From the NCBI GenBank assembly GCA_016879935.1, contig JAACJQ010000334.1, forward strand, positions 1 through 51,388: a DNA stretch of 51,388 nucleotides, written 5' to 3'. This stretch comes from Archangiaceae bacterium (GTDB lineage Bacteria; Myxococcota; Myxococcia; Myxococcales; Myxococcaceae). A program made the translations under genes and the position numbers. The notes beneath the pieces were generated by a model that saw only the letters and a program-made list of their open reading frames with translations, made no database searches and had not been told where the DNA came from. Numbering within the stretch: the first letter of the stretch is position 1; the number at the start of each line of letters is the position of its first letter. Below, piece by piece: positions 5,502 through 24,990 of this stretch.

Positions 5502-6101
5502 TCAGGGAGGAACGGAGCCATCGAGGCCGTCACAGCTCGACACCGCCCGGAAGAAGTTGGTGCGTTGGCCATCGGCGAGGTCGAACCCGGGCTCTTCGTC
5601 GCTGGCACGCCACGTCGTTCGCAGCTCGAGCCGCTCAGCGATGACGACGCCTCCGTCTTCGAGCGCCACTTCACCCGCGTCCACCAGGCCCGCGTCATGG
5701 GCGAACTCGTAGTGGTACGGCGCCGCCACGTTGAGCGGGAAACAGGCCGAGCCCCGCCAGCGGCCCCCTGCCCGCGTCAGCGCCACGCCGCTCGAGAAGG
5801 CGTTGAGCTCGATGCGCAGCGTGCCGACCGTCACACCCGCGGCAGGCTCCTGGTCCGAGATGCTGAAGTTCGTCGCGCAGCAGCGCGTGTCGACGACGAT
5901 GACGCCCGAGTCGATGGCGGGAATCGATGCGTCGAGCGCGAACTCCTCCGAGAGCGCGGGAATGCCGGCGTTCGCCGTCGGCCCGTCGAAGACGACCTGT
6001 TCGGGTTCGCCCGCGTCGTCTTCGGTGACGATGGGTGGTGGGCGCGGGCACGCCGCGAAGAGCACCAGCAGCGAGAGCGAGACGAAGAAGCGAGCGCTCA
6101 T
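5502..6101 (-). CDS. Small lipoprotein, last gene of the lectin/OmpA surface cluster
   Basis: The protein has 199 residues. The first 20 (MSARFFVSLSLLVLFAACPR) form a lipoprotein signal with lipobox LFAAC, so it should be lipid-anchored in the envelope. I recognise no domain in the mature part; it has two cysteines close together (RCCATNF) and a beta-rich character. The ATG overlaps the stop of the upstream HEAT-repeat gene by four bases (ATGA), which sets the start and implies translational coupling. It is the fifth and last gene of the minus-strand cluster that begins with the OmpA-like protein. Confidence 0.8.
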   Translation of the reverse strand: MSARFFVSLSLLVLFAACPRPPPIVTEDDAGEPEQVVFDGPTANAGIPALSEEFALDASIPAIDSGVIVVDTRCCATNFSISDQEPAAGVTVGTLRIELNAFSSGVALTRAGGRWRGSACFPLNVAAPYHYEFAHDAGLVDAGEVALEDGGVVIAERLELRTTWRASDEEPGFDLADGQRTNFFRAVSSCDGLDGSVPP

Positions 6102-8113
6102 TGCAGCACCTGGTCGGGCAGGTCGACCCGGGGACCCATCGAGGGCGGAATCTGGGCCGGCGGCGGCGGCGCAGCCATCACGGGCAGCCGTACCGGCGTG
6201 TCGTTGCGGTGTTGGTCGGCCAGCGAAGGAATCGTCGCCAGCACCATCGTGATGTCCTCCTGCGGCAGGTACATCGCGATGAAGGGGAACATGCCGGAGT
6301 CGTTCTCGTACTCGACCTTCAGCTGGTCTCTGAAGGCGGCGCGAACCGTCTCGTCGGTCGCGACCAGGGGAGCGAGCAGCTGCAGCAGCGACTGCCGCGT
6401 CAGAATTCTCGGCTGACGGCGCAGGTACTGAACGGCCTCGCGCTTCAGGTCGTCGTCCACCACCTGGCCGACGTCTTGATACTGGTGGTGCACGACCTCG
6501 AAGAGCTCTCGCATCACGAGCGGGCTGGTCTCGCGGCGCAACCACTCGAGCGTGAAGTCACGAACGGCTGCCACGGGCATGCGGCGCATGCCGATGGGCA
6601 CGATGGCGCGCCACTCGGGGTCGGGGTGACGCGAGGCGCGCTCGAGCTCGGGCAGGAACGCGAGGTCGCCGGTGTTGCCGATGGCCGAGAAGAGTGGCGC
6701 GCGCTCCTCGATGGTCTGCCGAGCGGGCAGCTCCGACGCGAGGCCCGTCTGCACGGCCGTCCGCACCTCTTCGTCCTCCTGCCTCAACCCCGAGAGCATG
6801 CCGGCGTGAATGAGGGCGTGCTGCGAGACGCTGCGCTGCGACGGGGTGCCGGGCCGTCGTGACTCGGCGAGCAGCTCCTTCGCCAGTGGCGCGCCGACGT
6901 CGCGACGGGTCACCAGCCCGACGCTCGCGCGAATGCGGTCCATCTCCGAGGCGTTGCGCTCGCGCCAGACGTCGAGCAGCACCTCACGCGCCGCCGTGTT
7001 CTGCGTCGACGACAGCGCGAGAAAGCCGGCCGCCTTCCACTCCGGCTCGAACTCGGTGAGCACGGCGCCCGCGAACTCGGGAATCTGGTCGGGGTGCCCG
7101 TCGAGGAACGCGGCCATGTCACGCGTCTGCTCGTACAGGTTCGACGTGCGCCCGAACGTCTCGAGCATGCCCTTGAGCGCCTCGGGGTAGCTGACGTTGC
7201 GCATCGCCTCGACGCGCTGCTGGTGGTCGGGCGCGACGTAGGGGCGAACCTCCTGGCTCGGCACTTCTTCGAAGGTGTTGCCCCAGACGTAGTGCGCCTC
7301 GTCTCGCGCGGCCTCGGCGAGCACCGCGCCCTCGGGGGCGACGCTCGACACGCGCAGCGTCGAGGTCGCTTTGGTGACGAGGCCTGGCACCGAGAACGAC
7401 TCGGCGCTCTCGAGGAACTCGAACCAGCCACCGTTGCCACGCCGAACCTCGGTGTGCGAGCGGTCGACGATGATGCCGTTCATGCCGGGCGACCAGGTCG
7501 AGTCGTAGCGCTGAATCGTTCGCACGTAGTGGTGCGGCGCGCTGGCCGGGGCGATGGTGGCGAAGGCACGGCCCACGGCGTTGTCGAACGCCACCAGCGC
7601 CGGCGCCTGCTGCTTCGGGAGCGTGAACCACAGCTCGTGCGCCAGCCCCTGCTGCATTCGCGCGATGCGACGGAGCACGCCCTTCTGGCGAGCGAAGCCT
7701 TCGACCTCGCACCGCTCGTTGACGCGCACGAGCCAGGGTTGGTCCGCTCCCGCGGTGGTCTGGTCGAACGCGCCAGTGAGCGAGGTCGCCCTGGCGAGCA
7801 GCACCGAGCTCGAGGTGTCGACGTGCAGCACCTCGAAGGTGAGCCGCGCCGTCGAGCGGTTCTCGACCGCCTGAGCCGCGCCGGTCGTGTTCACCTGGGT
7901 CGTCGACGTCACGTCGTACGCGAGCAGGTTGCCAGCCGAGAACCTGCACGGCGGCTCGCTGACCTGCGCTGCTGGCGCGACACCGGGCGTGACGACGGGC
8001 GCGGGCGGCAGCGGGGGCCTGACGGTGGGAGGTGGAGCCGCTGCAGGGCGCAGCAGCACCACCGCCGCGACGAGCGCCAACACCGCGACGCTGACAAGAA
8101 GGGCGCGCTGCAT
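6098..8113 (-). CDS. Membrane-anchored HEAT-like / vitellogenin-N-like protein
   Basis: The 671-residue protein has an N-terminal hydrophobic segment (residues 5-23) followed by a Pro-rich linker. An N-terminal beta-rich part follows (LLAYDVTSTTQVN..., LTFEVLHVDTSSSVLLARA). The C-terminal two thirds are paired helices with repeated patterns such as FLALSSTQNTAAREVLLDVW and LAKELLAESR. This order, a beta sheet followed by an alpha-alpha solenoid, recalls the N-terminal domain of vitellogenin and large lipid-transfer proteins, but I cannot confirm homology by eye. It starts on the last base of the upstream lectin gene's stop and overlaps the downstream lipoprotein gene, so it sits inside one operon. 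A role in binding a lipid or a large partner at the envelope is inference. Confidence 0.75.
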   Translation of the reverse strand: MQRALLVSVAVLALVAAVVLLRPAAAPPPTVRPPLPPAPVVTPGVAPAAQVSEPPCRFSAGNLLAYDVTSTTQVNTTGAAQAVENRSTARLTFEVLHVDTSSSVLLARATSLTGAFDQTTAGADQPWLVRVNERCEVEGFARQKGVLRRIARMQQGLAHELWFTLPKQQAPALVAFDNAVGRAFATIAPASAPHHYVRTIQRYDSTWSPGMNGIIVDRSHTEVRRGNGGWFEFLESAESFSVPGLVTKATSTLRVSSVAPEGAVLAEAARDEAHYVWGNTFEEVPSQEVRPYVAPDHQQRVEAMRNVSYPEALKGMLETFGRTSNLYEQTRDMAAFLDGHPDQIPEFAGAVLTEFEPEWKAAGFLALSSTQNTAAREVLLDVWRERNASEMDRIRASVGLVTRRDVGAPLAKELLAESRRPGTPSQRSVSQHALIHAGMLSGLRQEDEEVRTAVQTGLASELPARQTIEERAPLFSAIGNTGDLAFLPELERASRHPDPEWRAIVPIGMRRMPVAAVRDFTLEWLRRETSPLVMRELFEVVHHQYQDVGQVVDDDLKREAVQYLRRQPRILTRQSLLQLLAPLVATDETVRAAFRDQLKVEYENDSGMFPFIAMYLPQEDITMVLATIPSLADQHRNDTPVRLPVMAAPPPPAQIPPSMGPRVDLPDQVLQ

Positions 8114-11100
8114 CACTTGAACTCCTCGGCAAACGGGGTGATGACCGGCGAGTAGATTTCGCCGTCGAAGCGCAGGGCCGGGTTGGTCGCGGCTCCGAAC
8201 TCCTTGATCTTGAAGCTCTGCGAGAAGAAGAAAAACTTGAGCTGAAAGTCGACGGAGCCGTCGAGCAGCTTTCGCTCCCAGACGCCGGTGTTCTCGGTTT
8301 CTCCGAACAGCCGGTACAACTTCTTCTGGCCGAACTGCGTGCGGAAGACCTCGACGTTGAGGTGCTTCAGCCCCCACTGCCATGACGCGGTGAAGATTTG
8401 CAGACCAAAGCCAACACAGACACCGAGCCGATTGCTTGGCAGACAGACGGAAGCATTGAAGCCAATCGAGAACTCGAGGTTGAACTTCACCTCGTTGTAG
8501 TTCGACTTCACCTCGGTCGCGCTCGCGTAGCCGCAGATGTAGGGCAGCTGGCTCGAGGTGTTGGCCGTGCCGACGGTGCCGTTGGCGGTCGACCGCTGGT
8601 AGGTGACACCCGCCCGCACGGGAACGGGGCTGGCCGCCAGTGCCAGGTTGGGGAAGGCGTGGTTGTTGTCGACGTTGACGTGCGCGGGCGTCAGGCCCCG
8701 CTGGCTGGCGAAGCCTCCACCCTCGAGCCACTGGTAGGTGGTCGAGGAGCGCGTGCGGCACCCCTCCGAGCCGCCGTCGAGGAAGCCGCCGTCGGCGCAG
8801 CCGTTGAACTCGTAGTTGTACGCCGTCTGAGCGCCAATCCAGTACGCGGGGCTCGACGCGCTCACGCCACCATCGCTCACGCCGTTGGCGAGCCCGATGG
8901 CGCGGTTCAAGTCGTTGAGCAGGCCGCCGCTGCGAGCGATGGCCAGCATGCCGCCCTTGTTCTTGCAGGCCGCGAGGGCGTCATCGAACGTCTTGGGCGA
9001 GTCTTCGACCGTGTAGCAGGTGGTGTCTCCGGCGCGCACGCAGGGGTAGTTGTTGCTCATGGCTCCCGTCGAGGTGCTGTTCTCGATGGACGAGCGCTCG
9101 CCACCCAGCTCGAGGTCGAGCTTGAACCCGACGCCCAGAGCCGCGCCGATCTCGACGGTGATGGGCACGGGCCCGATGTTGATGAAGAACTCGCGGCCTG
9201 CGCTGATGCCGAGCCCTTCTGACGTCGGCGAGAGCCACGACTTGAAGCCGTCTTTGCTGAAGAACTTTCCGCGTTCGGCCGCGCGCACCACGGGCTTTCC
9301 GCGCTTCGTCTCCATCAGCGTCTTCTTCGCGTCGGTGTTGAAGACGCCGTACTTCTTCCCCTGGAACAGGGCGATGAGCGGGTTGAGGTCGGGCGCGAAG
9401 CTCATCTGCAGCTTCCACTTCTCGGGCGTGTCGAGGCGGTTCTCGCAGCGCATCGGCGGCTCGAGCACGATGAACGACAGCACCGCGCTTCTCGCAGACC
9501 CACAACCGACGGTGAGCGGCTCTCCGGCCCGCTGGGTCGACGCGCTCGAGCTCGAGGTCGACCTCGAGTCGAACATGCTCACGGGCAGCTGACCGCTCAT
9601 GCCGCCTTCCGCGCGCTGGTCGTCCTTGCACTGGCGGTTCTCTGGCGTCTTCGTGCAGCTGCCGATGGTGCCGTTGGGGCCCGCGATGCAGGTGCCGTTG
9701 CCGCAGTCGGCGTTCGTCGTGCAGTCGCGCACGCAGCCGACCTGCGCGCCGTTGGCGTTGTTGCCGCCGATGTCGCGGTCTCCCGTCGGCTGCACGTTGC
9801 CCTTGTCGTTCTTGAGCTCGCGCTGCGCCGCGGGAATCTTCGGGCGTACGAAGAGCTGCCGCCTGAAGACGATGCTCTTGGGCGTGGAGCAGCGCTTGGC
9901 GACCTTGAGCGTGTAGCCGTTGAGCGATGGCAGGGTGGCGTTGTCGAGCGACGTGTCGGCCGGCGTGTGGCTGCTGCCGTCGAGGTCGATGCACGTGCGC
10001 ACCATGAACTCGGTGTCGTCGTCGAGCAGGTCGCTCATGAAGCCGTCGGGCGACGTCACCACCGCGCCCGGGTCGAGGCCCGTGCGAAGGGTCATGAGGC
10101 GCTTGCGAACGGCGGGGGTAATCTGCACGCGCTGATGGTTGGTCTGCAGGAAGTTGTTGCCGCCGCTCAATGGCAGCGATGGGAACTGTACCGAGTTGTT
10201 CGCCTGCCAGGGGTTCGCGAGGCTGCTGTCGACCCGCGCCATCTCGACCGTCATGCGAAGGTTGCGGTCGCGGAGTGAGGTGTTGGCAGGGTTGTTGGCG
10301 ACACGCGTTCGCGGCGAGTAGGGGTTGGCCGGCGCGTCGCCGCGCAGGTACCAGCCGAAGTCGATGTCGAGCGAGGGCAGGTAGTCGGGTTCTTCGACGT
10401 CGAGGGTCAGGTCGCCGTACGAGACCGTCTGCAGCAGGGCGCCCAGCTCGATTTCGGTGCTCGGGACGAAGCGCGCGGGAGCGGCCGCAGCGAACTGCGC
10501 CGACTGCGCGTAGTAGTCCATCATCGACACGTAGTCGCGCCGCGGGTCGTAGAAGAAGCCGATGGGGTTCGTGCCCACCGCAATCGACATGACGCCCGGC
10601 GAGATGAGCCGGCGCCTCGACGAGCTCAGGCCGTGCGGGTCGAACGACGACACGACCCACGAGCGCGAGAAGTCGTACCGGCTGCGAAACTGCGACTCCT
10701 CGAGCCCTGCCCGCTTCGACGCGTCGAAGAACGAGGTGGCCGGGTCGTTGTAGCCGTCCTGCTCGAAGCAGGTCGTGGGAATGGTCTGGCCCTTGCCGCC
10801 CATCAGCGCAAACCGGTACCCCGCGACGGGAGACGGCCGCTCGGCGCCACGCAACGAGGCCTCGCCGATGATGCAGCGCATGCCGAAGACGGTCTGGGTC
10901 AGCACGCCACCGTCGGGCGCCGTGGCGCCGGTCTTCTTCTCGAACTGGTCATACGCCCAGACGACGCCCGAGGTCTTGTCGTTGAGCGCGGTGCCATCGT
11001 CAGTCTTGTACGTGACGGCGGTGAAGACGCTGTACGGGAAGTCACTCTTGTACGTGTAGGCGCCACCTGCGCCGGGCGCGGGCATCGGGCTGCCGATGGG

Positions 11101-13146
11101 GTCGGAGCCACCGTCGGGCAGCGGCACCCAGTTGTTCACGACGGGCTGCGTGCCGAAGTGGGTGGGTTTGATGTTCGCGTCGTTCACGCACGCGAGGTCG
11201 GCGTTGCGGCGGGTGGCGCCGGTGCAGACCTTCGGCACGCACGCCTTCCCCGTACAGGCGGTCGCGACCGACGGGCAGGTGAGCACCGCAGGCGCGTTCT
11301 GGTCGAGGAAGTAGACGAGCCCGTCACGCGGGTTGGGCGCGTAGCGGTTGCTCCTGATGGTCGGGTCGCACCCGCACGTGTACGAGACCGTCGCCGTGCC
11401 GCACCTGAAGCGCGAGCCCGAAGCGTACCCAGTCCACGCGGCGAACGTCGGGTAGTAGTTGCAGGTGCCGAGCTGGCCCGAGCACGAGGTCGACTGAGGC
11501 GCGTCGAAGCAGGGCTGGCTCGAGCCGTCGTTCGTGACGGCGACGACGTTGATGGCGGTTCGACAGTCGAGGCGGCGTGCGGCGTCGTTGCCATTGGCCG
11601 AGCCGGTGGCCTTCACGGCCGGGTCGTCGGCGCAGCGGTACGTCGCGGTGACGCCGGTGGGCGCGACGCAGGTGTCGCGACCTCCACAGAGCCGGCTCAG
11701 CTCGAGGGTGCGCTCCGACGGCGAGACACTCACGAGGCGCACGCCGGTCTCGAGCAGGTCGGTTGCCGAGGTCGGGCAGTCGAAGTCGATGGCGTTGGCG
11801 CTCTGGTACTGGTCGATGGTCGTCTCTTTGGTGACGCTGTTGACGAGCGTGCCGCAGGCGTACCGGTACCTCGTTCGATTGCCGAGCTGCTGAATGCCGC
11901 CGTCGGGCCCGGTGAAGAAGCCCATGCCCGCGCCACCGATGTACCCGGCAGGCGAGCAGGTGCGCTTGCCGTCGCACCGGTCCTTCATCACCTGCGTGAG
12001 CACCGGGTCGGCCACGAGCGTGCCGAAGTTGTTCTCCTTGTCGACGCCGGTGATGGTGACGAAGTCACCGCACTTGAGGGTGGCCTTGTTGGTCGGGTAC
12101 GGCGATTGCGGGTCGAGCGCGCGGTAGTAGACGGCGCTCCCCGCGCCACAGGTGTAGCCGACGATGAGCAGCTCGCCACCGATGCGCAGGGTGCTGCCGT
12201 TGATCAGGCGCTTGTCGAGCCAGCCCATCTGGTCGGTGCCGCGAAGAACGAAGTTCTCGCTGCCGCCACCCCTGGCGTACCAGTTGGCAGGTGCAGCGCC
12301 GCTGGCCCGCAGGCCCGTGAACGTCACCTCGCACTGAGGCTTTCCATCACACGCCTTCACGAGCTGCTGCTTCAGCTCCTCGGCGTACTGCAATTGAGTG
12401 CTGTAATAGGGGTCGTAGCTGATGCGAAGCCGGGGCAGCGCCGAGACGATGCGAATGTTCTCTCGCACCTCGAACTTGCTCGCGACGGTCGGGCAGTAGA
12501 AGTCGAGCTTGAAGTCGTCGTACTCGGCGACACGCTCGAGGCCTTCGACGCCGCAGCGGTAGGTGACCTTCACGGTCTTCGAGTTGTTGGGGTGCGGGTC
12601 GCGGAAGGAGTTCAAGGAGTAGCCCGAGGCCCCGTTCGAGCAGCGCCGCTTCCCCGAGCAGGTGGCCGCGAGCTGCGCCGAGATGTCGGCCGGCGTCGGG
12701 CTGGCTGGCGCGTAGATGGCGCGCAGAATCGTCATCGGCTGACCGCAGCTGACCCGAATGAAGCGCTCGCTGCCCGTGCCCTCGACTCGAGCCTTGTACG
12801 TCGCAGGCTCGGTGCCGCAGGCGTAGGTGACCTCGGCGGCCGAGTCGTCGCAGGTGACCGCCTTCTGGCACTCGGCTTCGCCGTCGCAGCTGCCCCGCAG
12901 CTCCATGGGCGTCACGCCGCAGTTGGTGAGGTTGACGGTGAGCAGCTTGACCGTGTCTCCGACCGAGTTGCGCTTGAGCGGCTCGAGGCCGCCGCCGGTC
13001 GTCAGGTCCCACCCGATTTCACTCGCGTTCGGGCACGACTGGGTCGGGTCGTACGCCGAGAAGAGCGGCGGCGCCTCGGGAATGGGCTCTGGCTCGCACG
13101 CGGTGGCGAGCACCACGAGGGACAAGAAGAGGGTCGAGCGTTTCAT
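8113..13146 (-). CDS. Giant cysteine-rich lectin-like lipoprotein (SUEL-like and C-type-lectin-like domains)
   Basis: The product has 1677 residues. Residues 1-17 form a lipoprotein signal with lipobox ATAC. Residues about 25-510 hold several cysteine-paired modules such as VSCGQPMTILRAIYA, then CSGKRRCSNG, then KVTYRCG, as in SUEL/rhamnose-binding lectins. A cysteine-rich EGF-like stretch lies near 1135-1165 (CTTNADCGNGTCIAG). Residues about 1365-1540 form a C-type lectin-like domain with CYTVEDSPKTFDDALAAC, YWIGAQ and the closing QLPYICG. The last 130 residues are beta-rich. The start overlaps the upstream gene's stop as ATGA. Binding of surface glycans is inferred from the folds; calcium ligands cannot be assigned by eye. 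Confidence 0.82.
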   Translation of the reverse strand: MKRSTLFLSLVVLATACEPEPIPEAPPLFSAYDPTQSCPNASEIGWDLTTGGGLEPLKRNSVGDTVKLLTVNLTNCGVTPMELRGSCDGEAECQKAVTCDDSAAEVTYACGTEPATYKARVEGTGSERFIRVSCGQPMTILRAIYAPASPTPADISAQLAATCSGKRRCSNGASGYSLNSFRDPHPNNSKTVKVTYRCGVEGLERVAEYDDFKLDFYCPTVASKFEVRENIRIVSALPRLRISYDPYYSTQLQYAEELKQQLVKACDGKPQCEVTFTGLRASGAAPANWYARGGGSENFVLRGTDQMGWLDKRLINGSTLRIGGELLIVGYTCGAGSAVYYRALDPQSPYPTNKATLKCGDFVTITGVDKENNFGTLVADPVLTQVMKDRCDGKRTCSPAGYIGGAGMGFFTGPDGGIQQLGNRTRYRYACGTLVNSVTKETTIDQYQSANAIDFDCPTSATDLLETGVRLVSVSPSERTLELSRLCGGRDTCVAPTGVTATYRCADDPAVKATGSANGNDAARRLDCRTAINVVAVTNDGSSQPCFDAPQSTSCSGQLGTCNYYPTFAAWTGYASGSRFRCGTATVSYTCGCDPTIRSNRYAPNPRDGLVYFLDQNAPAVLTCPSVATACTGKACVPKVCTGATRRNADLACVNDANIKPTHFGTQPVVNNWVPLPDGGSDPIGSPMPAPGAGGAYTYKSDFPYSVFTAVTYKTDDGTALNDKTSGVVWAYDQFEKKTGATAPDGGVLTQTVFGMRCIIGEASLRGAERPSPVAGYRFALMGGKGQTIPTTCFEQDGYNDPATSFFDASKRAGLEESQFRSRYDFSRSWVVSSFDPHGLSSSRRRLISPGVMSIAVGTNPIGFFYDPRRDYVSMMDYYAQSAQFAAAAPARFVPSTEIELGALLQTVSYGDLTLDVEEPDYLPSLDIDFGWYLRGDAPANPYSPRTRVANNPANTSLRDRNLRMTVEMARVDSSLANPWQANNSVQFPSLPLSGGNNFLQTNHQRVQITPAVRKRLMTLRTGLDPGAVVTSPDGFMSDLLDDDTEFMVRTCIDLDGSSHTPADTSLDNATLPSLNGYTLKVAKRCSTPKSIVFRRQLFVRPKIPAAQRELKNDKGNVQPTGDRDIGGNNANGAQVGCVRDCTTNADCGNGTCIAGPNGTIGSCTKTPENRQCKDDQRAEGGMSGQLPVSMFDSRSTSSSSASTQRAGEPLTVGCGSARSAVLSFIVLEPPMRCENRLDTPEKWKLQMSFAPDLNPLIALFQGKKYGVFNTDAKKTLMETKRGKPVVRAAERGKFFSKDGFKSWLSPTSEGLGISAGREFFINIGPVPITVEIGAALGVGFKLDLELGGERSSIENSTSTGAMSNNYPCVRAGDTTCYTVEDSPKTFDDALAACKNKGGMLAIARSGGLLNDLNRAIGLANGVSDGGVSASSPAYWIGAQTAYNYEFNGCADGGFLDGGSEGCRTRSSTTYQWLEGGGFASQRGLTPAHVNVDNNHAFPNLALAASPVPVRAGVTYQRSTANGTVGTANTSSQLPYICGYASATEVKSNYNEVKFNLEFSIGFNASVCLPSNRLGVCVGFGLQIFTASWQWGLKHLNVEVFRTQFGQKKLYRLFGETENTGVWERKLLDGSVDFQLKFFFFSQSFKIKEFGAATNPALRFDGEIYSPVITPFAEEFK

Positions 13147-16100
13147 GGGTTGATCCTCGCGACGCCAGGGTCGCTGGGCGACGCCGCGCCCGTCGAGAAC
13201 ACGCCTGCGATGACGATGCGGCCGAGCGAGTCGACGGCTGCTGCGAGCCCGACGGCCTGGCCTGAGTAGGTGTCGAGGAATTGACCTGACGTGCCGAAGG
13301 TCATGTCGTGCGCGCCGCTCGCGCTGAAGCGCAACACGGCGACGCTGGTGTCGCTCGAGCCCACTGCATACCAACCGCCGCCAGGCCTCGCCGCGAGCGC
13401 GGTGAAGCGCTCATCGGGGGTCGCGGCGCCAACGCCCGTGACGCCGGCAGCGCCGAACGTCGTGTCGAGCACGCCCGCTGAGGTGAAGGCCGCGAGGTAG
13501 AAGTTCGAAGCCGACGAGTCGAGGCCCGAGCCCGCTGCGACGAGACGCGTGCCATCGAGCGCCACGGCGTTGAGCTGGTCGGCGTAGAGACCGGTGGTGA
13601 GGTCGACGGTCGTCACACCGCTCGTGCCGAAGGTGCTGTCAGGCACGCCCGCGGCGGTGAGCTTGATGACGAGCGAGTCCTGGTCGCGGAAGCCGACCGC
13701 GAAGATGTCGTTCGAGGCGTCGAGCACCACGGCGTTGAGCGCCTCCATCGGCGTCGTCGTCGGCAGGTAGCGGCCACCCGTCGCGAAGGTGCTGTCGAGC
13801 ACGCCCGCCGTGGTGAGCCGGGCCACGAGCATCTCGCCGCCGAACTGGCCCTGCCGCCCGACGACGACGATGCGGCCCATCGAGTCGAGCGCGAGGCCGC
13901 TGCCAACCTCGTCTCCGCCGAAGTCGAAGGTGGCGACGCCGTTGGTGCCGAACGTGGTGTCGAGCACCCCGGCCGCCGTCAGCCGTGCGACCCCGAGGTC
14001 GAGGTCGGTCGTGCCCCGGAGCGCGCCCGCGACGAGGTAGCGGCCCATGGAGTCTCGCGCGATGGCGTACGCCTGCTCGGGGCCCGTCGCCTTCGTGATG
14101 AGCCGATGCCCGCTCGCGCCGAAGGTGGTGTCGACGGCGCCACTCGCCGTGACCTTCGACACGAGCCACTGCGTCGAGCCCATGACGGGCTCCGCGAACC
14201 CGGCCAGCACCATCGTGCCATCGGGGTTGATGACCATCGCCTGCCACCCATCGCCGTTGGCCGTCTGGGCGACCGTCAAGTAGCCGTTGGTGCCGAAGGT
14301 GGTGTCGCGGCCGGCGGGCCCGGCGCCAGCGCACGTCACGGTCACGTTGCCGACGTTCATCGTCGCCGTGCCGGTGGCATTCTGAATCGTACAGGTCTGG
14401 CCTTGTGGCTGCGTTGCCACGGTGACGCTGTACATGCCTGACACCGGTGTGAGGAATTGCCACGAGCCGTTCGACGAGAGCGTCAGCTGCTCGCTGCCGT
14501 TGTCGAGCACGACCGTCTTCGCCATGCCCAGGCCAGAGAGCGTGCCGCCGAGCGTGAAGGTGTCGGCGCAGGTGACGGTGACGTTGGTGACGGCCATCGT
14601 CGCCGTGCCGGTGTCGTTGGTGACGACGCACGTCTGGCCCATCGGCTGCGTGACGACGGTGACGGCGGTAGGCGCCGGTGACGGGCGTGGCGAACGTGAA
14701 GGCGCCGTTGGCCATTCGCGTGAGCCGCTCGCCGTTGTTGTCGAGGGTGACCGACTTGCCGGTGCCGAGGCCCGAGATGGAGCCGCCGATGGTGAAGGTG
14801 GGCGCCGAGGTGCACTCGACCGAGATGGAGGTGACGTCGGCGGTCGGCGCGGGGCCAGAGCCGTTGGTCACCAGGCAGGTGGCGCTCGCGGGCTGCGTGC
14901 TGACCGTCACGTTGTACGCACCCGCAGGCTGGAGCGGGAACGAGAAGATGGTGTTCTGGCTGAGCACGAGCGGGCTGGCGCCGTTGTTCTGCAGCGTCAC
15001 CGTCTCACCCGCGGGCAGGCCGGTGAGCAGGCCGCCGATGAGGTAGCGGCGCACGCACGTCACCGTGAGGAGCACGTTCGCCGTCGCAGTGCCGCTGGGG
15101 CTGCCCACGGTGCACGAGGCCTGACTCGGCTGGCGCGAAATCGTGACGGCGTACGCTCCGGTCGTGCGCGTGGGGAACCGGTAGGTGCCCGAGCTCGAGA
15201 TGGTCAACCGGTCGGCGCCGTTGGAGAGCTCCAGCTCGGCGCCGGCGCCGCTGATGTCGGACGGGAGATCGACCACCGCGCCGAGGCTGAAGACGCGTTG
15301 GCAGGTTTGAGCGACGCAGTCGTGCGTCGCGAGGTCGGCGCAGTCACCCGACGTTCGGCACGCACGCCCGGCCGCGCAGGCCTCGCAGTGCCCGCCGCAG
15401 TCGACGTCGGTCTCGTCGGCGTTCTTCCGGGTGTCGGTGCACGAGTCGGCGAGGCAGACCTTCTGCGTCGGGTGACAGAAGCCCGAGGCACAGTCAGCGT
15501 CGGCGCCACAGGCGAGGCCGACCGCGCAGCCGGCGTTGCACACGGCGCCACAGTCGACGTCACTCTCCTGCCCCGACTTCACGCCATCGGTGCAGGCGTT
15601 CGAGAGCATGCTCGTCGCGCCGCCGTTGTTCAGCGACGCGGTCAACAGCCCGCCCTGCATCCACGAGGTGGTCTCGGCCTGGAGGCTGACGGCGCCCGAG
15701 CCCGCGCCGGTCAGGAAGAACTGAGCCGAGCGCGTGTCACCCGAGGTGGTGCGCCCCTGCACCTGCACCGCGACCGGCGTGCCCATCGCGCCCGACAGCT
15801 CGAGCGTCACCCGGCCCGTCGCAGCGTCGACCTGCGCCGAGACCGAGTCGGAGCCACCGCTCACGAAGGCCGTCACCGTCAGCTCGCCCATGCCCGTCGG
15901 AATTCGGGTCGTGAGCTGCATCGGGCTGTGCGAGTTGTTCGTGTACGTGCCGCCCTGCGGCGTGGCGGTGAACGTGTCGCGCGCCGTCACCCGCAGACCA
16001 GTCGCAGTGGTGAAGGCTCCGCTCTGCAGCGCCGCCACACCCTGAAACGCGTCGGGGTTGAGCGGGTCGGGCGGCATGGTGACGTTCACGACGACCTGCG

Positions 16101-17169
16101 AGCCCATCTGCGACATGGCGTCGGCGCCGAGGCCGATGACGAAGCTCGTGCCTTCGGCGTCGGCCGGGTCGGAGAAGGAGGGCGTGATGGAGGTGCCGGC
16201 GGCCGTCGAAATCTCTCCATCATCGAGGCCAACCGTTCCCGTCGGAGTCGTGATGCTGGGCTGCGCGCCGCCGGTGGTGACGACCTGCGCTCCGCCGCCT
16301 TCACAGAATGGGCACGGGAGCACGCCCTGTCGGGCGAAGACTGGCGCGAGGTAGATGGGGTTGTTGTTCGACGAGTCGCCGAAATACAGACGCGATGGCG
16401 CGTTCGGGTTCGTGTTCGACTCGAACTCCCAGCGGTTCTTGACGGTGTCGAGCTTCATCAGCCGCTCCACCTCGGGGTGGTTGTTGTCGTAGACGCGCAG
16501 CCAGTAGACGCCGGTCGCCTTCGGGTCGCGGTAGAAGCCGATGGGCGTGAGCGAGTGCCCACCCGAAATGCTCGCGCCGTTCTTGCGAACGATGCCGATG
16601 CGGTAGTGCTCGGTCGCCGTGTCCTCCAGCGAGTCGGCCAGCACGCCGAGCACGTCTTTCGCCGTGTACTGCTTCGTCTTCGAGCCGACCGCGCCGGGCA
16701 CGAGCTGCGTGGCGAACCAGTAGGCAATCTCCTTCTGCAGCGGCGTGTTGTCGTCGAGCGTGAGCTCGCGCGCGGTGTCGGCGCCGAACGTCTTCGGGTC
16801 GACCTTCTTCGCGGCCATCAGGTCGCTGAGTACGGCGAACCCTTCGCAGCGGCCGCCAGACATCGAGGTGTTCGCCTGCTCCATGAAGGTGCGGGCCGCG
16901 CTCGTCAGCTCGCACGGCGTGCTGCCGGGCGTGCAGACCTTGTCACCGAACATGCGCTGCATCGCCGCGGTGTCGAGCGCCGACGAGTCATAGCCAGTGA
17001 CGAAGTTCGGGAACGCCAGCGCGTCACGGTCCATTCGGAACGAGGAGCTCGCGACGTCTGGAATGGGCTTGCTGCCGCATTGGCACGCGGAGGTCGAGAG
17101 AACGGCGGTCAGCACGGCGATGGTCGCCAGGCCTCCCCGCCGTCTCGCGCCTGTGTACACGAATGACAA
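13143..17169 (-). pseudogene. Multidomain surface lipoprotein gene interrupted by a single-base frameshift
   Basis: Removing one base near 14667-14668 gives a continuous protein of 1341 residues. The TTG start at 17169 is chosen because GAGGAGG lies six bases upstream. A lipobox (LSTSAC) follows the signal. Residues about 90-260 look like a papain/transglutaminase-type cysteine peptidase (GGRCEGFAV, GGHSLTP, VYDNNHP). Next come two Cys-rich repeats (CTDGVKSGQESDVDCG, CTDTRKNADETDVDCGG) near 525-620 and four Ig-like repeats ending in VTC near 626-945. The C-terminus is a row of delta-60 repeats (LDTTFGTNGV type). Both halves keep normal codon use and the end still overlaps the next start, so the break is recent or a sequence error. 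Confidence 0.8.
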
Positions 17170-17221
17170 GACAGACCTCCTCAGTGCGCCGCCTCGACGG
17201 GAGGCAGCGAGCAATGGCAAT

Positions 17222-18697
17222 TCAGTCACCAACGATTTTGAACTCGACGCGGCGGTTCTTCTCGCGGCCGACGGGCGTGTCGTTCGTGTCGGCCGGTCGC
17301 GCAGGGCCGTAGCCGATGGGCTCGAGGCGCGAGGGGTCGACCTTCTGCGACAGGTACTTGAAGACCGCGTCGGCGCGCTTCTGGCTCAGCGCGAGGTTCT
17401 TCTGCGGGTCGCCGACGTTGTCGGTGTGGCCTTCGATCTGCACCTTCTTGATGTCGGGGTGCGCCTTGAGCACCGCCGCGACCTGGTCGAGCAGCGGGAA
17501 CGACTTGGGCAGCACCGAGGCATCGCGCGTGGCGAAGTAGACCTTCTCGAGAATCTCGATCTTCTCCTTGGTGATGACGACGAGCTGCTTCTGCTCCTTC
17601 GGGCACCCCTGATTGTCGGCAGGGCCAGCCACCGCAGGGCAGTTGTCAGACGGGTCGGGCAGCCCATCGCCGTCGGTGTCGGGCGGAGGCGGAGGCGGCG
17701 CCACGCGAGGGTCGGTCTCCCCTTCGTCGACGACCCCGTCGTGGTTCTTGTCTTCGTCGCCGTCGCTCACGCCGTCACCGTCGGTGTCGGCCTTCGTCGG
17801 GTCGGTGTTGGTGGCGAGCTCGAGCTTGTCGCCGAGCGCGTCGCCGTCGGTGTCGGCCTTGAGCGCGTCGGTCTTGCCCGCGAGCTCGACGTCGTCGGTG
17901 AGCCCATCGCCGTCGGTATCTGCTTTGAGCGGGTCGGTCTTGCGCGCGAGCTCGACGTCGTCAGCGACGCCATCACCATCGGAGTCGGCTTTGAGCGGGT
18001 CGGTCTTGCCCGCGAGCTCGACGTCGTCACGCAGCCCGTCGCCGTCGGTGTCGGCCTTGCGCGGGTCGGTGTGATGAACCTCGAGCTCGGCCGCGTTGGT
18101 GAGGCCGTCGCCATCGTCATCGGGCGGCGGCGGAACGGGGAACGGCACGAGGTCGAACGACGCGCTCACGCCGACGACCGCCATCACCGTCGCGCCGCGC
18201 TTGAGCCCCGGAGCCGCGACGACGCCGCGCGCGAAGGGCCCGATGCCCAGGCGGTCGAACACGGTGAACTGGTAGCCCGCGCCAAGGTCAGCCGAGAACG
18301 CGCCACCGTCGAGGAGCCGCGCGCCGACGTGCACGCTCGCCCAGAGGTTGCCCTTGTCGGTGTCGAAGAAGCGAAAGCGCGGGCCAACGCCGAGGCCGAT
18401 GTTCGCGGTCGCCGCAGGCAGCTTCTCGAGGTTGCGAATCGAGAGCCACGAGGGGAGCAGCAGCACTCCGAAGTCGGCCATCACCTCGAGGGCGAGTGGA
18501 CGAAACAGCTGGTAGTCGACGCCGACCGCGAGCTGCGGCCCGAAGGCCTGCGCCGCGTAGTTCGTTCCGACCGCGGTGCCGTAGCGGCCAGTGAAGGGCG
18601 CCGCGAGGCCGAGGTCTGCGTTGAGGTTGATTTGGCCCGACTCGGCATGTGCAACACCGGCCAGCGTGACAAGGAGCGCGAGGCTTCTTCCCTTCAA
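17222..18697 (-). CDS. OmpA-family outer membrane protein with TSP3 calcium-binding repeats
   Basis: The 491-residue protein has a TTG start preceded by AAGGAG at six bases, giving a clean signal peptide (residues 1-19, ending AHAES). Residues 20-185 form a beta-barrel region. Residues about 190-350 carry thrombospondin type 3-like repeats (DTDGDGLRDDVEL type) that bind calcium in the family. Residues about 385-490 are the OmpA C-terminal domain, with IEGHTDNVGDPQKNLALSQ and GREKNRRVEFKI, expected to bind peptidoglycan. It heads the cluster, with 52 bases to the next start. It probably anchors the complex between the outer membrane and the cell wall. Confidence 0.93.
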   Translation of the reverse strand: MKGRSLALLVTLAGVAHAESGQINLNADLGLAAPFTGRYGTAVGTNYAAQAFGPQLAVGVDYQLFRPLALEVMADFGVLLLPSWLSIRNLEKLPAATANIGLGVGPRFRFFDTDKGNLWASVHVGARLLDGGAFSADLGAGYQFTVFDRLGIGPFARGVVAAPGLKRGATVMAVVGVSASFDLVPFPVPPPPDDDGDGLTNAAELEVHHTDPRKADTDGDGLRDDVELAGKTDPLKADSDGDGVADDVELARKTDPLKADTDGDGLTDDVELAGKTDALKADTDGDALGDKLELATNTDPTKADTDGDGVSDGDEDKNHDGVVDEGETDPRVAPPPPPPDTDGDGLPDPSDNCPAVAGPADNQGCPKEQKQLVVITKEKIEILEKVYFATRDASVLPKSFPLLDQVAAVLKAHPDIKKVQIEGHTDNVGDPQKNLALSQKRADAVFKYLSQKVDPSRLEPIGYGPARPADTNDTPVGREKNRRVEFKIVGD

Positions 18698-18855: not shown

Positions 18856-19284
18856 TCAGCGAGTCAGCCCCTCGAGCCAGACGCGAACGGTGCGCACGCG
18901 AAGCGGCAAATCGTCGCGCGTCATCATCCACCCGAAGTGGCGCGTGTTGCCGGTGAGCAGCACGTCTGCGCCACAGCCGACCGCGGCGGCGACCACCCAC
19001 GCATCGTCTTCAGGCAGCTTTCCCTCGGCCCACGGCAGCGCGGCGGGCGCAGGGTCGACCAGCTCGATGTCGAGGAAGAGCGACTCGAGCCGAGCCAGCG
19101 CGTGCGGCTTCTTGAGTGTCAGATTGCGGCGCGCCTCGTCGACACACTGAGGGCTCGTGCAGAAGGTGGCGAGCCCGGCGGTGCGCATGCTCCACAACTG
19201 CGTGAAGCTCTCGCCACCGAGCGCTGCCGAGAAGATGACGTTCGCGTCGAGGAAGAGGCGCACGGGTGGTAACGAGGGCACCAT
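18856..19284 (-). CDS. PIN-domain protein (VapC-like ribonuclease candidate)
   Basis: The protein has 142 residues from the ATG at 19284; a GTG at 19263 would give 135. LFLDANVIFSAALG near the N-terminus supplies the first PIN acidic residue. DDAWVVAAAVGCGADVLLTGNTRHFG supplies the later Asp and the TxNxxDF-like block, here TGNTRHF. PIN domains are metal-dependent RNases. No antitoxin gene is adjacent; the divergent neighbour encodes a Thg1-like enzyme whose start codon overlaps this one. It could be an orphan toxin or a housekeeping nuclease. Confidence 0.75.
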   Translation of the reverse strand: MVPSLPPVRLFLDANVIFSAALGGESFTQLWSMRTAGLATFCTSPQCVDEARRNLTLKKPHALARLESLFLDIELVDPAPAALPWAEGKLPEDDAWVVAAAVGCGADVLLTGNTRHFGWMMTRDDLPLRVRTVRVWLEGLTR

Positions 19285-20086
19285 GAAGGACGAGCTGGGC
19301 AACCGGATGAAGGAATACGAGATGGCCGAGGCCGGAGCGCGCCTCATGCCACGTCTTCCCATCTGCGCGCGCATCGACGGCAAACGATTCTCGAAGTTCA
19401 CCGAGGGGCTGCCGCGGCCCTACGACGTGCGCCTCTCGAAGCTGATGGTCGAGACCACGAAGTACCTCGTCGACGAGACCGTGGCGCGCATCGGCTACAC
19501 GCAGTCAGACGAGATCAGCCTCGTGTGGTTCGACGAAGACCCGAAAGCGCAGAGCTTTCTCGACCGCCGCGTGCAGAAGCTGACCTCGATTCTCGCCTCG
19601 ATGACGACGGCGTTCTTCAACAAGCACCTGGCGGCCGCCATCCCCGAGCGGGCCGACGCGCTGGCGCTCTTCGACTGCCGCGTGTGGGCCGTGCCGACGA
19701 AGGACGAGGCCGCGAACGTGCTGCTGTGGCGCGAGCTCGACGCGACCAAGAACTCCGTCAGCATGGCGGCGCGCGCGCACTACTCGCACGCCGAAGTCGT
19801 CGACCAGAACAACGCAGCGATGCACGAGCTGCTGTTCAAGAAGGGCGTGAACTGGAACGACTACCCACCGTTCTTCAAGCGCGGCACCTTCGTGCGCCGG
19901 CAGTCGGTCGAGCGTGCCTTCACCGCTTCGGAGCTCGAGGCCCTGCCGCCCATGCACGCCGCGAGAACCGACCCGAACCTCGTCGTCACCCGCACGGCGC
20001 TGGTCGAGCTCGAGATGCCTCCGTTCGCGAAGGTGCTCAACCGCGTCGGCGTCATCTTCGACGGCGAGGCACCCCGCACCGCCTGA
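19283..20086 (+). CDS. Thg1-like (TLP) 3'-to-5' RNA polymerase
   Basis: The protein has 267 residues and a GAGG site seven bases before the ATG. The opening GNRMKEYE, the RIDGKRFSKFT metal-binding Asp and YTQSDEISLV with the Asp-Glu pair are the signatures of the tRNA-His guanylyltransferase superfamily, which adds nucleotides 3'-to-5'. The HINNLYN motif of eukaryotic Thg1 is replaced by QNNAAMHELLF, as expected for bacterial Thg1-like proteins, which are known to repair truncated tRNA 5' ends. Bacteria normally encode G-1 of tRNA-His, so a repair role is more likely here. The gene diverges from a PIN-domain nuclease gene, a suggestive RNA cleavage/repair pairing. Confidence 0.93.
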   Translation: MKDELGNRMKEYEMAEAGARLMPRLPICARIDGKRFSKFTEGLPRPYDVRLSKLMVETTKYLVDETVARIGYTQSDEISLVWFDEDPKAQSFLDRRVQKLTSILASMTTAFFNKHLAAAIPERADALALFDCRVWAVPTKDEAANVLLWRELDATKNSVSMAARAHYSHAEVVDQNNAAMHELLFKKGVNWNDYPPFFKRGTFVRRQSVERAFTASELEALPPMHAARTDPNLVVTRTALVELEMPPFAKVLNRVGVIFDGEAPRTA

Positions 20087-23454: not shown

Positions 23455-24990
23455 ATGCGGCGTCTGCTCCTCACTGCTGTGCTGTTCACCACCGCGGCCC
23501 ACGCGTCGGGCTTCTACTTCGGCGACAACGGCGCCAAGGCCATGGTGCAGGGCGGCGCTTTCACTGCGCAGGCTGACGACGTCTCGGCGATGCAGCACAA
23601 CCCGGCTGGCCTGACGCAGCTCAAGGGCCTCTCGTTCCTCGTCGACGGCAACTTCATGAACAACGAAGTGTCGTTCTGGCGCCAGGACCCGGGTTGGAAC
23701 CCGGGCGCGCCGTCGAACCTGATGGAGAAGGTGCTGCGCACGGGCAGCAACTTCGCTCCGGGTGGCACGGTGTTCGTGTCTCCGATGTTCGGTGTGTCGT
23801 ACGGCTTCGAGCTGTTCGGCCGCGCGGCGACGGTGGCGCTGGGCCTCTACGTGCCGCCCGCGGTGGGGCTCAATCAGTACGCCGCGCCCGACTACACGCA
23901 GGAGAACGGCCGCTACGTGAAGAACCCGCGCCGCTTCTCGCGCAATCGCTACATGCTCGTGAAGCAGGACATCGTCATCGCGTTCCCGACGCTGTCGCTC
24001 GCGTACGACATTCACCGGCTGGTGCAGGTCGGCGTGTCGCTGCAGCTCGTCGTCTCGCAGTTCGACTTCAACCAGGCCGTGTACAGCGGCTTGTCCGACC
24101 CGACGAAGTCGACCGAAGAAGACCCGTCGTTCGACTCCATCGTCTCGGCGAACCTGCAGGGGAAGATGGGCTTCACCGCCGTCGCCGGCGTGATGGTGCG
24201 CCCCACCGACTCGTTGTCGTTCGGCGTCTCGGTGCGCCCGCCCATCGCGATTCGCGCGCGCGGCAAGCTGACGTTCGAGCTCGGTGAGGCGGCGCGGTCG
24301 CTGAACTCGCAGGTGACGGGTGACCAGGGAGAGCTCGCCTTCACGATGCCGCTCGAGCTGGCCGTCGGAGCGCGCTTCTCGCCCTCGCAGACGTGGGGCG
24401 TGAACGCCGACTTCCGCTACCAGGGGTGGAACTCGCTCGACGCGCTGGTGCTCACGCCCATCGACGTGACGCTGAAGGTGGGCGCCGGAGAGCCGCAGGC
24501 CGTGGCGCCGTTCCGCATTCCGAAGAACTGGGTCGGCACGTTCTCGGCGCGCGTGGGTGGCAGCTATCGCCCGTGGAAGTGGACGACGTTCTCGGCGGGC
24601 GCCTGGTACGAGACGTCGGCGCAGCCCTCGCAGTACTTCGCGCTCGACTTCCCGCACCCGAACCGCGTGTTCCTCACCGCGGGCGTGACCGGCCACCTCG
24701 GGCCCGTCGATGTCATCGTCGGCTTCGTCTACACGCCGACGCAGACGTACAACATCACCGACTCCGAGCAGCGGCAGGGGCAGACGAGCGCCGACTTGAA
24801 GGGCGGCATCGTCGGCAACGGGCAGTACGTCGTCGGAGGCTGGGTGGTGTCGGCCGGTGTTCGCGGCAACTTCCAGTTCGGTGCGCAGAAGGAAGCGCCG
24901 AAGGCCGAGGTCGCGCCCGTGGTTGCGCCCGTGACGCCGCCCGCTGCCGAGCCGACGCCCGCGCCTGCACCGGCTCCCGCGACGCCGTGA
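23455..24990 (+). CDS. FadL/OmpP1-type outer membrane transport protein
   Basis: The 511-residue protein has a signal peptide (residues 1-18, MRRLLLTAVLFTTAAHAS) followed by GFYFGDNGAKAMVQGGAF and HNPAGLTQLKG, the N-terminal hatch motif of the FadL family of hydrophobic-compound channels. The remaining body alternates polar and apolar residues as in a beta barrel, to about residue 480. The last 30 residues are Pro/Ala/Glu rich and would extend beyond the barrel, which is unusual because FadL proteins normally end in a barrel strand. No operon partner is obvious. A weak GCCACA/TGTGGC hairpin follows the stop. Confidence 0.92.
   Translation: MRRLLLTAVLFTTAAHASGFYFGDNGAKAMVQGGAFTAQADDVSAMQHNPAGLTQLKGLSFLVDGNFMNNEVSFWRQDPGWNPGAPSNLMEKVLRTGSNFAPGGTVFVSPMFGVSYGFELFGRAATVALGLYVPPAVGLNQYAAPDYTQENGRYVKNPRRFSRNRYMLVKQDIVIAFPTLSLAYDIHRLVQVGVSLQLVVSQFDFNQAVYSGLSDPTKSTEEDPSFDSIVSANLQGKMGFTAVAGVMVRPTDSLSFGVSVRPPIAIRARGKLTFELGEAARSLNSQVTGDQGELAFTMPLELAVGARFSPSQTWGVNADFRYQGWNSLDALVLTPIDVTLKVGAGEPQAVAPFRIPKNWVGTFSARVGGSYRPWKWTTFSAGAWYETSAQPSQYFALDFPHPNRVFLTAGVTGHLGPVDVIVGFVYTPTQTYNITDSEQRQGQTSADLKGGIVGNGQYVVGGWVVSAGVRGNFQFGAQKEAPKAEVAPVVAPVTPPAAEPTPAPAPAPATP

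What the first reader, a model, noticed from the sequence alone, without database searches (positions are those of the whole stretch)
5502..18697. Five-gene envelope operon: OmpA/TSP3 barrel, modular lipoprotein, giant lectin, HEAT/vitellogenin-like protein, small lipoprotein
Four of five junctions overlap (ATGA or TGATG), and the genes encode exported products that read as one surface machine: a peptidoglycan-linked barrel, two giant lipid-anchored chains, a long alpha solenoid and a small lipoprotein. The architecture recalls the TraA/TraB pair of Myxococcus, an OmpA-type protein with a cysteine-rich, lectin-like surface receptor, though sequence homology was not shown. A self-recognition, prey-contact or lipid-transfer apparatus is a reasonable guess.
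Basis: partly seen in the sequence, partly recalled or inferred. Interest (0 to 1): 0.75.

Follow-up and report, generated by a model that had tools for sequence, protein, structure and literature searches.

The report
Bacterial two-gene vitellogenin-like lipid system
Soil predatory bacteria carry a relative of the animal egg-yolk and blood-fat carrier proteins, split over two neighbouring genes that are nearly always found together, which suggests a bacterial lipid carrier built like vitellogenin or the microsomal triglyceride transfer protein.

Summary
The five genes are real. Three of four junctions overlap by 1-4 nt; the first (g1/g2) is uncertain, and gene 2 carries a one-base frameshift absent from relatives. 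The TraA/TraB analogy fails: gene 1 is a facultative neighbour and the TraA/TraB-defining features are missing.

The conserved core is genes 3 and 4. Gene 4 is predicted (AlphaFold, pLDDT 78) as an 11-strand barrel with a central helix followed by a HEAT superhelix; its eight best PDB matches are all animal large lipid transfer proteins (MTP, lipovitellin, vitellogenin, ApoB). Its Myxococcota relatives pass the Pfam Vitellogenin_N cut-off in 53 of 195 genomes. Apart from one subfamily beside dnaA, these genes lie next to a gene with a conserved, strongly amphipathic beta domain: 22 of 22 such domains in 13 complete genomes, and 8 of 8 in the genus, are adjacent. That domain's best Pfam match, sub-threshold, is the vitellogenin open beta-sheet. 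In this window a C-type lectin domain is inserted in it.

Best reading: an LLTP split over two genes, barrel/solenoid plus beta-sheet partner, in the envelope. Complex formation, lipid cargo and direction are untested.

The parts
17222..18697 (-). g1: exported OmpA-type protein, N-terminal barrel-like part, six TSP3 repeats, C-terminal OmpA domain; facultative neighbour
   Evidence: Pfam TSP3_bac 1.5e-29, OmpA 1.3e-20; orthologues upstream of g2 in G150, downstream of g4 in G151, on another contig in G152
14668..17232 (-). g2, N-terminal part: lipoprotein with a domain holding invariant Cys, His and Asp (GGRCEGFAV, GGH[AS][LV]TPI, RVYDNN), cysteine-peptidase/transglutaminase-like by motif only; start uncertain (17232 TTG or about 17155 GTG)
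13143..14666 (-). g2, C-terminal part after the frameshift near 14667: repeat modules and DUF5122/delta-60 repeats
   Evidence: PF17164 1.7e-21, TIGR02608 3e-55; intact in relatives
8113..13146 (-). g3: giant lipoprotein (lipobox LATAC), SUEL-like cysteine motifs, C-terminal amphipathic beta domain with inserted C-type lectin domain
8116..9340 (-). beta domain of g3, the conserved partner domain (lectin insert about 8520-9060)
6098..8113 (-). g4: LLTP-like protein, signal anchor, Pro-rich linker, 11-strand barrel (residues 54-280), HEAT superhelix (297-636)
5502..6101 (-). g5: small lipoprotein, conserved with the cluster in the close clade

Best explanation
Genes 4 and 3 are the two halves of a bacterial large-lipid-transfer-protein (LLTP) system. 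Gene 4 supplies the barrel plus alpha-solenoid module that in animals forms the N-terminal half of MTP, vitellogenin and ApoB. The C-terminal domain of gene 3 supplies long amphipathic beta-strands that take the place of the open beta-sheets found in the same chain in animals. The two assemble in the periplasm into a lipid-binding cavity: gene 4 is probably held by its N-terminal signal anchor in the inner membrane, gene 3 by its lipid anchor in the outer membrane, so the complex would carry or bridge lipid between membranes or to the surface. The lectin and the other modules of genes 1, 2, 3 and 5 are lineage-specific additions that tie it to cell wall or surface glycans. Shown here by computation: family, predicted fold, near-obligate pairing, amphipathic strands. 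Inferred: complex formation, membrane placement, lipid cargo, direction.
For: Fold: Foldseek top eight are all LLTPs (MTP 6i7s 1.4e-13, lipovitellin 1lsh 1.4e-9, bee Vg 9ens 2.1e-8, ApoB 1.7e-7 to 1.4e-5); the next family is at 4.8e-4; alignments run over barrel and solenoid together (model 52-614). Sequence: 12 of 27 family members match Vitellogenin_N, some over cut-off; PF01347 over cut-off in 53/195 Myxococcota genomes, best 63.5 bits, none in 14 controls; g4 family against those proteins hhalign E 3.7e-43 full length; their profile finds 1lsh (4.2e-10) and MTP (2.5e-4) in register. Pairing: beta-domain gene next to g4 in the covered relatives and next to all 17 tested PF01347 loci; 22/22 and 8/8 beta domains in whole genomes adjacent, max gap 784 nt in the complete genomes. 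Co-divergence r 0.92, 0/2000 permutations. Strands amphipathic, z 7.7. Best Pfam match of the beta domain is Vit_open_b-sht; 4 of 28 weak PF09172 hits in 195 genomes fall on these partner genes. Near-invariant C56 and invariant C135 fit an oxidising compartment.
Against: The window's own g4 has no significant Pfam hit. Vitellogenin_N matches lie mostly in the HEAT part (profile 300-586), where HEAT_2 also matches; a barrel-only profile found nothing in PDB sequences. The beta-domain model is weak (pLDDT 56) and its PF09172 matches are below cut-off. Seven of 29 LLTP genes in complete genomes, one subfamily beside dnaA, lack a recognisable beta partner. No lipid, expression or interaction data.
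Confidence: 0.55

Rival explanations
1. MTP-ApoB-like division of labour: gene 4 is a lipid-loading chaperone and gene 3 the client, whose amphipathic beta-strands take up lipid and are then displayed or released as a bacterial lipoprotein particle. The two do not form one stable cavity.
For: Same data as above; MTP is the best match and the partner has amphipathic strands on a variable, exported chain with lectin and other modules.
Against: Tight one-to-one pairing and co-divergence fit a permanent complex at least as well; no sign of processing or release.
Confidence: 0.2
2. Surface recognition or prey-contact machine of the TraA/TraB type: gene 1 anchors it to the wall and the lectin protein is the receptor; gene 4 is only a scaffold.
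For: OmpA-type gene 1 next to lectin-bearing lipoproteins in two genomes in the same order; C-type lectin fold in g3.
Against: Gene 1 is missing from the cluster in most relatives; TraA/TraB-defining features not met; the lectin insert is absent in the divergent clade while the 3+4 pair persists.
Confidence: 0.1
3. Gene 4 is a HEAT-repeat scaffold with a chance barrel: the LLTP likeness is convergent, and the partner is a secreted protein that it chaperones, without lipid.
For: HEAT_2 is the commonest Pfam match; other solenoids score alike on the helical part.
Against: Only LLTPs match barrel and solenoid in this order, with E-values far better than other HEAT proteins; relatives pass the Vitellogenin_N cut-off; the partner's best Pfam match is the vitellogenin sheet.
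Confidence: 0.13

Closest known systems
Animal large lipid transfer proteins (MTP, vitellogenin/lipovitellin, ApoB, apolipophorin)
   Same: N-terminal beta-barrel with central helix followed by an alpha superhelix in the same order; detectable Vitellogenin_N sequence signal in relatives; partner with long amphipathic beta-strands
   Different: Bacterial; chain ends after the helical domain; the beta-sheets sit on a second, adjacent gene; no vWD domain; signal anchor instead of secretion
TraA/TraB outer-membrane-exchange pair of Myxococcus (PMC3325183)
   Same: Overlapping genes, OmpA domain in one protein, lectin-like domain in another
   Different: No PA14, TIGR04201 cysteine repeats or MYXO-CTERM found; TraB model far below cut-off; gene 1 not obligate
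Bacterial periplasmic lipid transport (Lpt, Mla, TamB/AsmA-like), from general knowledge
   Same: Proposed role: moving lipid across the periplasm with an amphipathic beta surface
   Different: No sequence or fold match to these families was seen; alpha-solenoid plus barrel is not part of them
C-type lectin-like domains
   Same: Fold of the insert in g3 (Z 13.5, rmsd 2.0 over 97 residues)
   Different: Inserted inside a beta domain; no Pfam lectin hit for it; ligand unknown

Membership tests
Large lipid transfer protein superfamily | N-terminal beta-barrel around a central helix | tested here: met
   DSSP of the predicted model: strands 63-257, helix 148-160; ApoB barrel 9bd8 Z 16.3, 280 residues
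Large lipid transfer protein superfamily | Alpha superhelix following the barrel | tested here: met
   helices 297-636; lipovitellin and MTP aligned over model 52-609
Large lipid transfer protein superfamily | Vitellogenin_N (PF01347) over curated cut-off | tested here: inconclusive
   not for the window protein; yes for several family members and 53/195 Myxococcota genomes
Large lipid transfer protein superfamily | Open beta-sheets (C/A sheets) in the same chain | tested here: not met
   g4 ends after the solenoid; a beta domain is on the adjacent gene. So the pair is described as a split variant, not filed as a classical LLTP
Large lipid transfer protein superfamily | Partner beta domain is PF09172 (vitellinogen open beta-sheet) | tested here: inconclusive
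   best Pfam family, E 0.014, below cut-off; enriched among weak genome hits
Large lipid transfer protein superfamily | Binds and transfers lipid | not testable with these tools
   needs biochemistry
TraA | PA14 domain, TIGR04201 repeats, MYXO-CTERM | tested here: not met
   no such Pfam or NCBIfam hit in g2 or g3
TraB | NCBIfam NF033763 over cut-off | tested here: not met
   102.9 bits vs 700
C-type lectin fold | CTLD fold | tested here: met
   g3 insert, Z 13.5, rmsd 2.0 over 97 residues, on a model of modest confidence
SUEL lectin | PF02140 over cut-off | tested here: not met
   19.2 bits vs 31.4

The most novel reading that the evidence does not exclude
Myxococcota carry a two-component LLTP in which an inner-membrane-anchored barrel/solenoid and an outer-membrane beta-sheet lipoprotein meet in the periplasm to form a lipid conduit: a new bacterial lipid-transport system, and a bacterial branch that could bear on the origin of animal yolk and ApoB proteins.
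Probability: 0.3. Interest if true: 0.92.

Novelty: new variant of a known kind. Interest (0 to 1): 0.78.

Why it matters
LLTPs are, to general knowledge, treated as an animal invention. A widespread bacterial family with the same barrel-solenoid module, nearly always paired with an amphipathic beta-sheet protein, would give a small and genetically tractable model of how LLTPs load lipid. It would add a candidate route for lipid traffic in the two-membrane envelope of predatory, multicellular bacteria, and it makes the origin of LLTPs testable. No paper on bacterial LLTPs was found in the held library; that library lacks most subscription journals and all preprint servers.

Tried and rejected
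A 27-member g4 alignment was too diverse for the pattern search of genome contigs; a six-member subset found seven loci, including two Labilithrix. Plasmids gave no g4 relative. A barrel-only profile found nothing among PDB sequences, nor did the beta-domain profile. hhalign between lectin-bearing and lectin-free beta domains was weak on its own (37 %); position next to the LLTP, the shared terminal motif and the whole-genome searches carry that link. Foldseek on the g3 domain returned only lectins in the rows shown, because the insert fills the list, so the fold of the beta part stays open. An in-frame giant protein plus LLTP in G171 is probably two genes without a stop between them, so it was not used as a fusion argument. 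A strict lipobox pattern found 13 of 46 partner genes and 0 of 31 LLTPs; it misses W-containing boxes, so it is used only as a hint. Whole-phylum profile searches with the LLTP alignments failed on the server. Sigma-70 promoter scan: nothing.

Full report
Observation. The five minus-strand genes exist. Junctions g2/g3, g3/g4 and g4/g5 overlap by four, one and four bases. The g1/g2 overlap depends on a TTG start; a better lipoprotein start lies further in. Gene 2 has a single-base frameshift near 14667: its N-part ends in a repeat unit, and the other frame continues the same repeat and runs through DUF5122 propeller repeats to the g3 start. Five relatives have one intact frame of 1250-1350 aa, so the slip is an assembly error or a private lesion. 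About 60 nt below g5 the next gene on the strand is tex.

What is conserved. Searching 195 Myxococcota genomes with gene 4 gave 26 genomes. In the 31 loci read around these hits, the gene directly upstream on the same strand ends in the same kind of sequence, down to about 20 % identity of g4; one copy (L035) is degraded. Gene 2 and gene 5 accompany the pair only in the closer clade; gene 1 is absent from most clusters. In the closest relative the order g1-g2-g3-g4-g5 is the same; in G151 an orthologue of g1 lies downstream of g4; in G152 it is on another contig. So the unit is the pair g3+g4, with accessories.

Gene 4. The AlphaFold model from eight sequences (mean pLDDT 78, pTM 0.52) shows a signal-anchor helix, a disordered Pro-rich linker, about eleven strands with one helix at 148-160, then about twenty helices. 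Foldseek against the PDB ranks MTP, lipovitellin, bee vitellogenin and ApoB in the first eight places (1.4e-13 to 1.4e-5), before any other protein. VIA-align covers barrel and solenoid together for ApoB, lipovitellin and MTP; the rmsd is large (15-22 A, read here as differing curvature and domain angle), and pure solenoids tie on the helical part alone. Sequence evidence is independent of the model: 12 of 27 family members match Vitellogenin_N, a few above its cut-off and at matching profile positions. A search of the phylum with PF01347 itself finds 53 of 195 genomes above cut-off, up to 63.5 bits, mostly in frames of 620-760 aa, and none in 14 controls. Gene 4 and those proteins align over their whole length (hhalign E 3.7e-43), and the profile of the latter finds lipovitellin (4.2e-10) and MTP (2.5e-4) at corresponding positions of the helical domain. 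The barrel alone carries no sequence signal. All seven genomes of the genus carry at least one such gene; the window's own genome has a second, partial match.

The partner. The last 160-250 residues of the upstream protein form a conserved domain. AlphaFold gives long strands of 26-31 residues at low confidence. Hydrophobicity alternates along the strands far more than in shuffled profiles (z 7.7), as in sheets with one lipid-facing side. In this window and the close clade a C-type lectin domain is inserted in it; the divergent clade has the same domain without the insert. A profile of the domain found a partner gene at all 17 tested PF01347 loci, eleven of which had not been used to build it, upstream, downstream or on the opposite strand. 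The strict test used whole genomes: in 13 complete genomes the beta profile has 22 hits and the LLTP profile 29 full-length hits, clearly separated from HEAT noise (next best 40 bits); all 22 beta domains lie within 784 nt of 22 different LLTP genes, and the two genomes without LLTP have no beta domain. In the genus, 8 of 8 are adjacent. Seven LLTPs without a recognisable partner belong to one subfamily beside dnaA. The profile was seeded near LLTPs, but no solitary member turned up in these genomes. Pairwise distances of the two proteins over 44 pairs correlate at 0.92 (0 of 2000 permutations); common inheritance contributes to this.

Link to vitellogenin sheets. The best Pfam family for the beta domain is PF09172, the vitellinogen open beta-sheet, sub-threshold. 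A search of 195 genomes with PF09172 gave 28 weak hits, none over cut-off; four of them, in two genera, are exactly such partner genes next to an LLTP (G193 twice, G073, G074). Partner domains make up roughly one ten-thousandth of the sequence searched (estimate), so this is above chance, though each hit alone is weak.

Mechanism. Animal vitellogenin has a barrel, a helical domain and further beta-sheet domains in one chain, the helical domain and DUF1943 being the presumed lipid-binding region (PMC8727950). Here the first two are on gene 4 and a beta-sheet domain is on gene 3. The simplest reading is a split LLTP that assembles in the periplasm. Gene 4 has an N-terminal hydrophobic anchor and no lipobox in 31 relatives; gene 3 has a lipobox; C56 (near-invariant) and C135 (invariant) fit an oxidising compartment. 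Placement in inner and outer membrane, the complex and the lipid are inference. The rival that gene 4 loads lipid onto a client, as MTP does for ApoB, is close to it and cannot be separated by sequence.

TraA/TraB. [quoted passage not shown] None of the TraA features was found, and g1 is far below the TraB cut-off. The likeness is limited to an OmpA domain near a lectin.

Limits. One structure model is weak, distribution outside Myxococcota was not testable here, and there are no functional data.

Noticed in passing
window 14660-14670: Single-base frameshift in g2 inside a repeat unit; relatives have an intact frame.
   Followed up: yes
window 16300-17000 (g2 N-terminal domain): Invariant Cys, His and Asp in GGRCEGFAV, GGH[AS][LV]TPI and RVYDNN across six relatives, like a cysteine-peptidase or transglutaminase triad, with no Pfam match.
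   Followed up: partly
L103-L109: A separate LLTP subfamily sits directly next to dnaA (gene identity from reading the sequence) in several complete genomes, without a recognisable beta partner; in some a MYXO-CTERM-like protein is the convergent neighbour.
   Followed up: partly
L035 (G149:C73): A degraded copy of the cluster: remains of g2 fused to the end of g3 upstream of an intact g4; the same genome has a complete second copy (L036).
   Followed up: partly
L101/L102 (G171:C28 13108-27855): A 4916-aa open frame joins a giant EGF-like cysteine-rich protein to an LLTP lipoprotein with no stop between them.
   Followed up: partly
window 23455-24990: FadL/TodX-type outer-membrane transporter for hydrophobic compounds about 5 kb upstream of g1.
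   Followed up: no
window 19157-20086: Thg1-type tRNA-His guanylyltransferase domain, to general knowledge uncommon in bacteria, just upstream of g1 on the other strand.
   Followed up: no
G000:C188:40283-41287: Second, partial LLTP match in the window's own genome.
   Followed up: no
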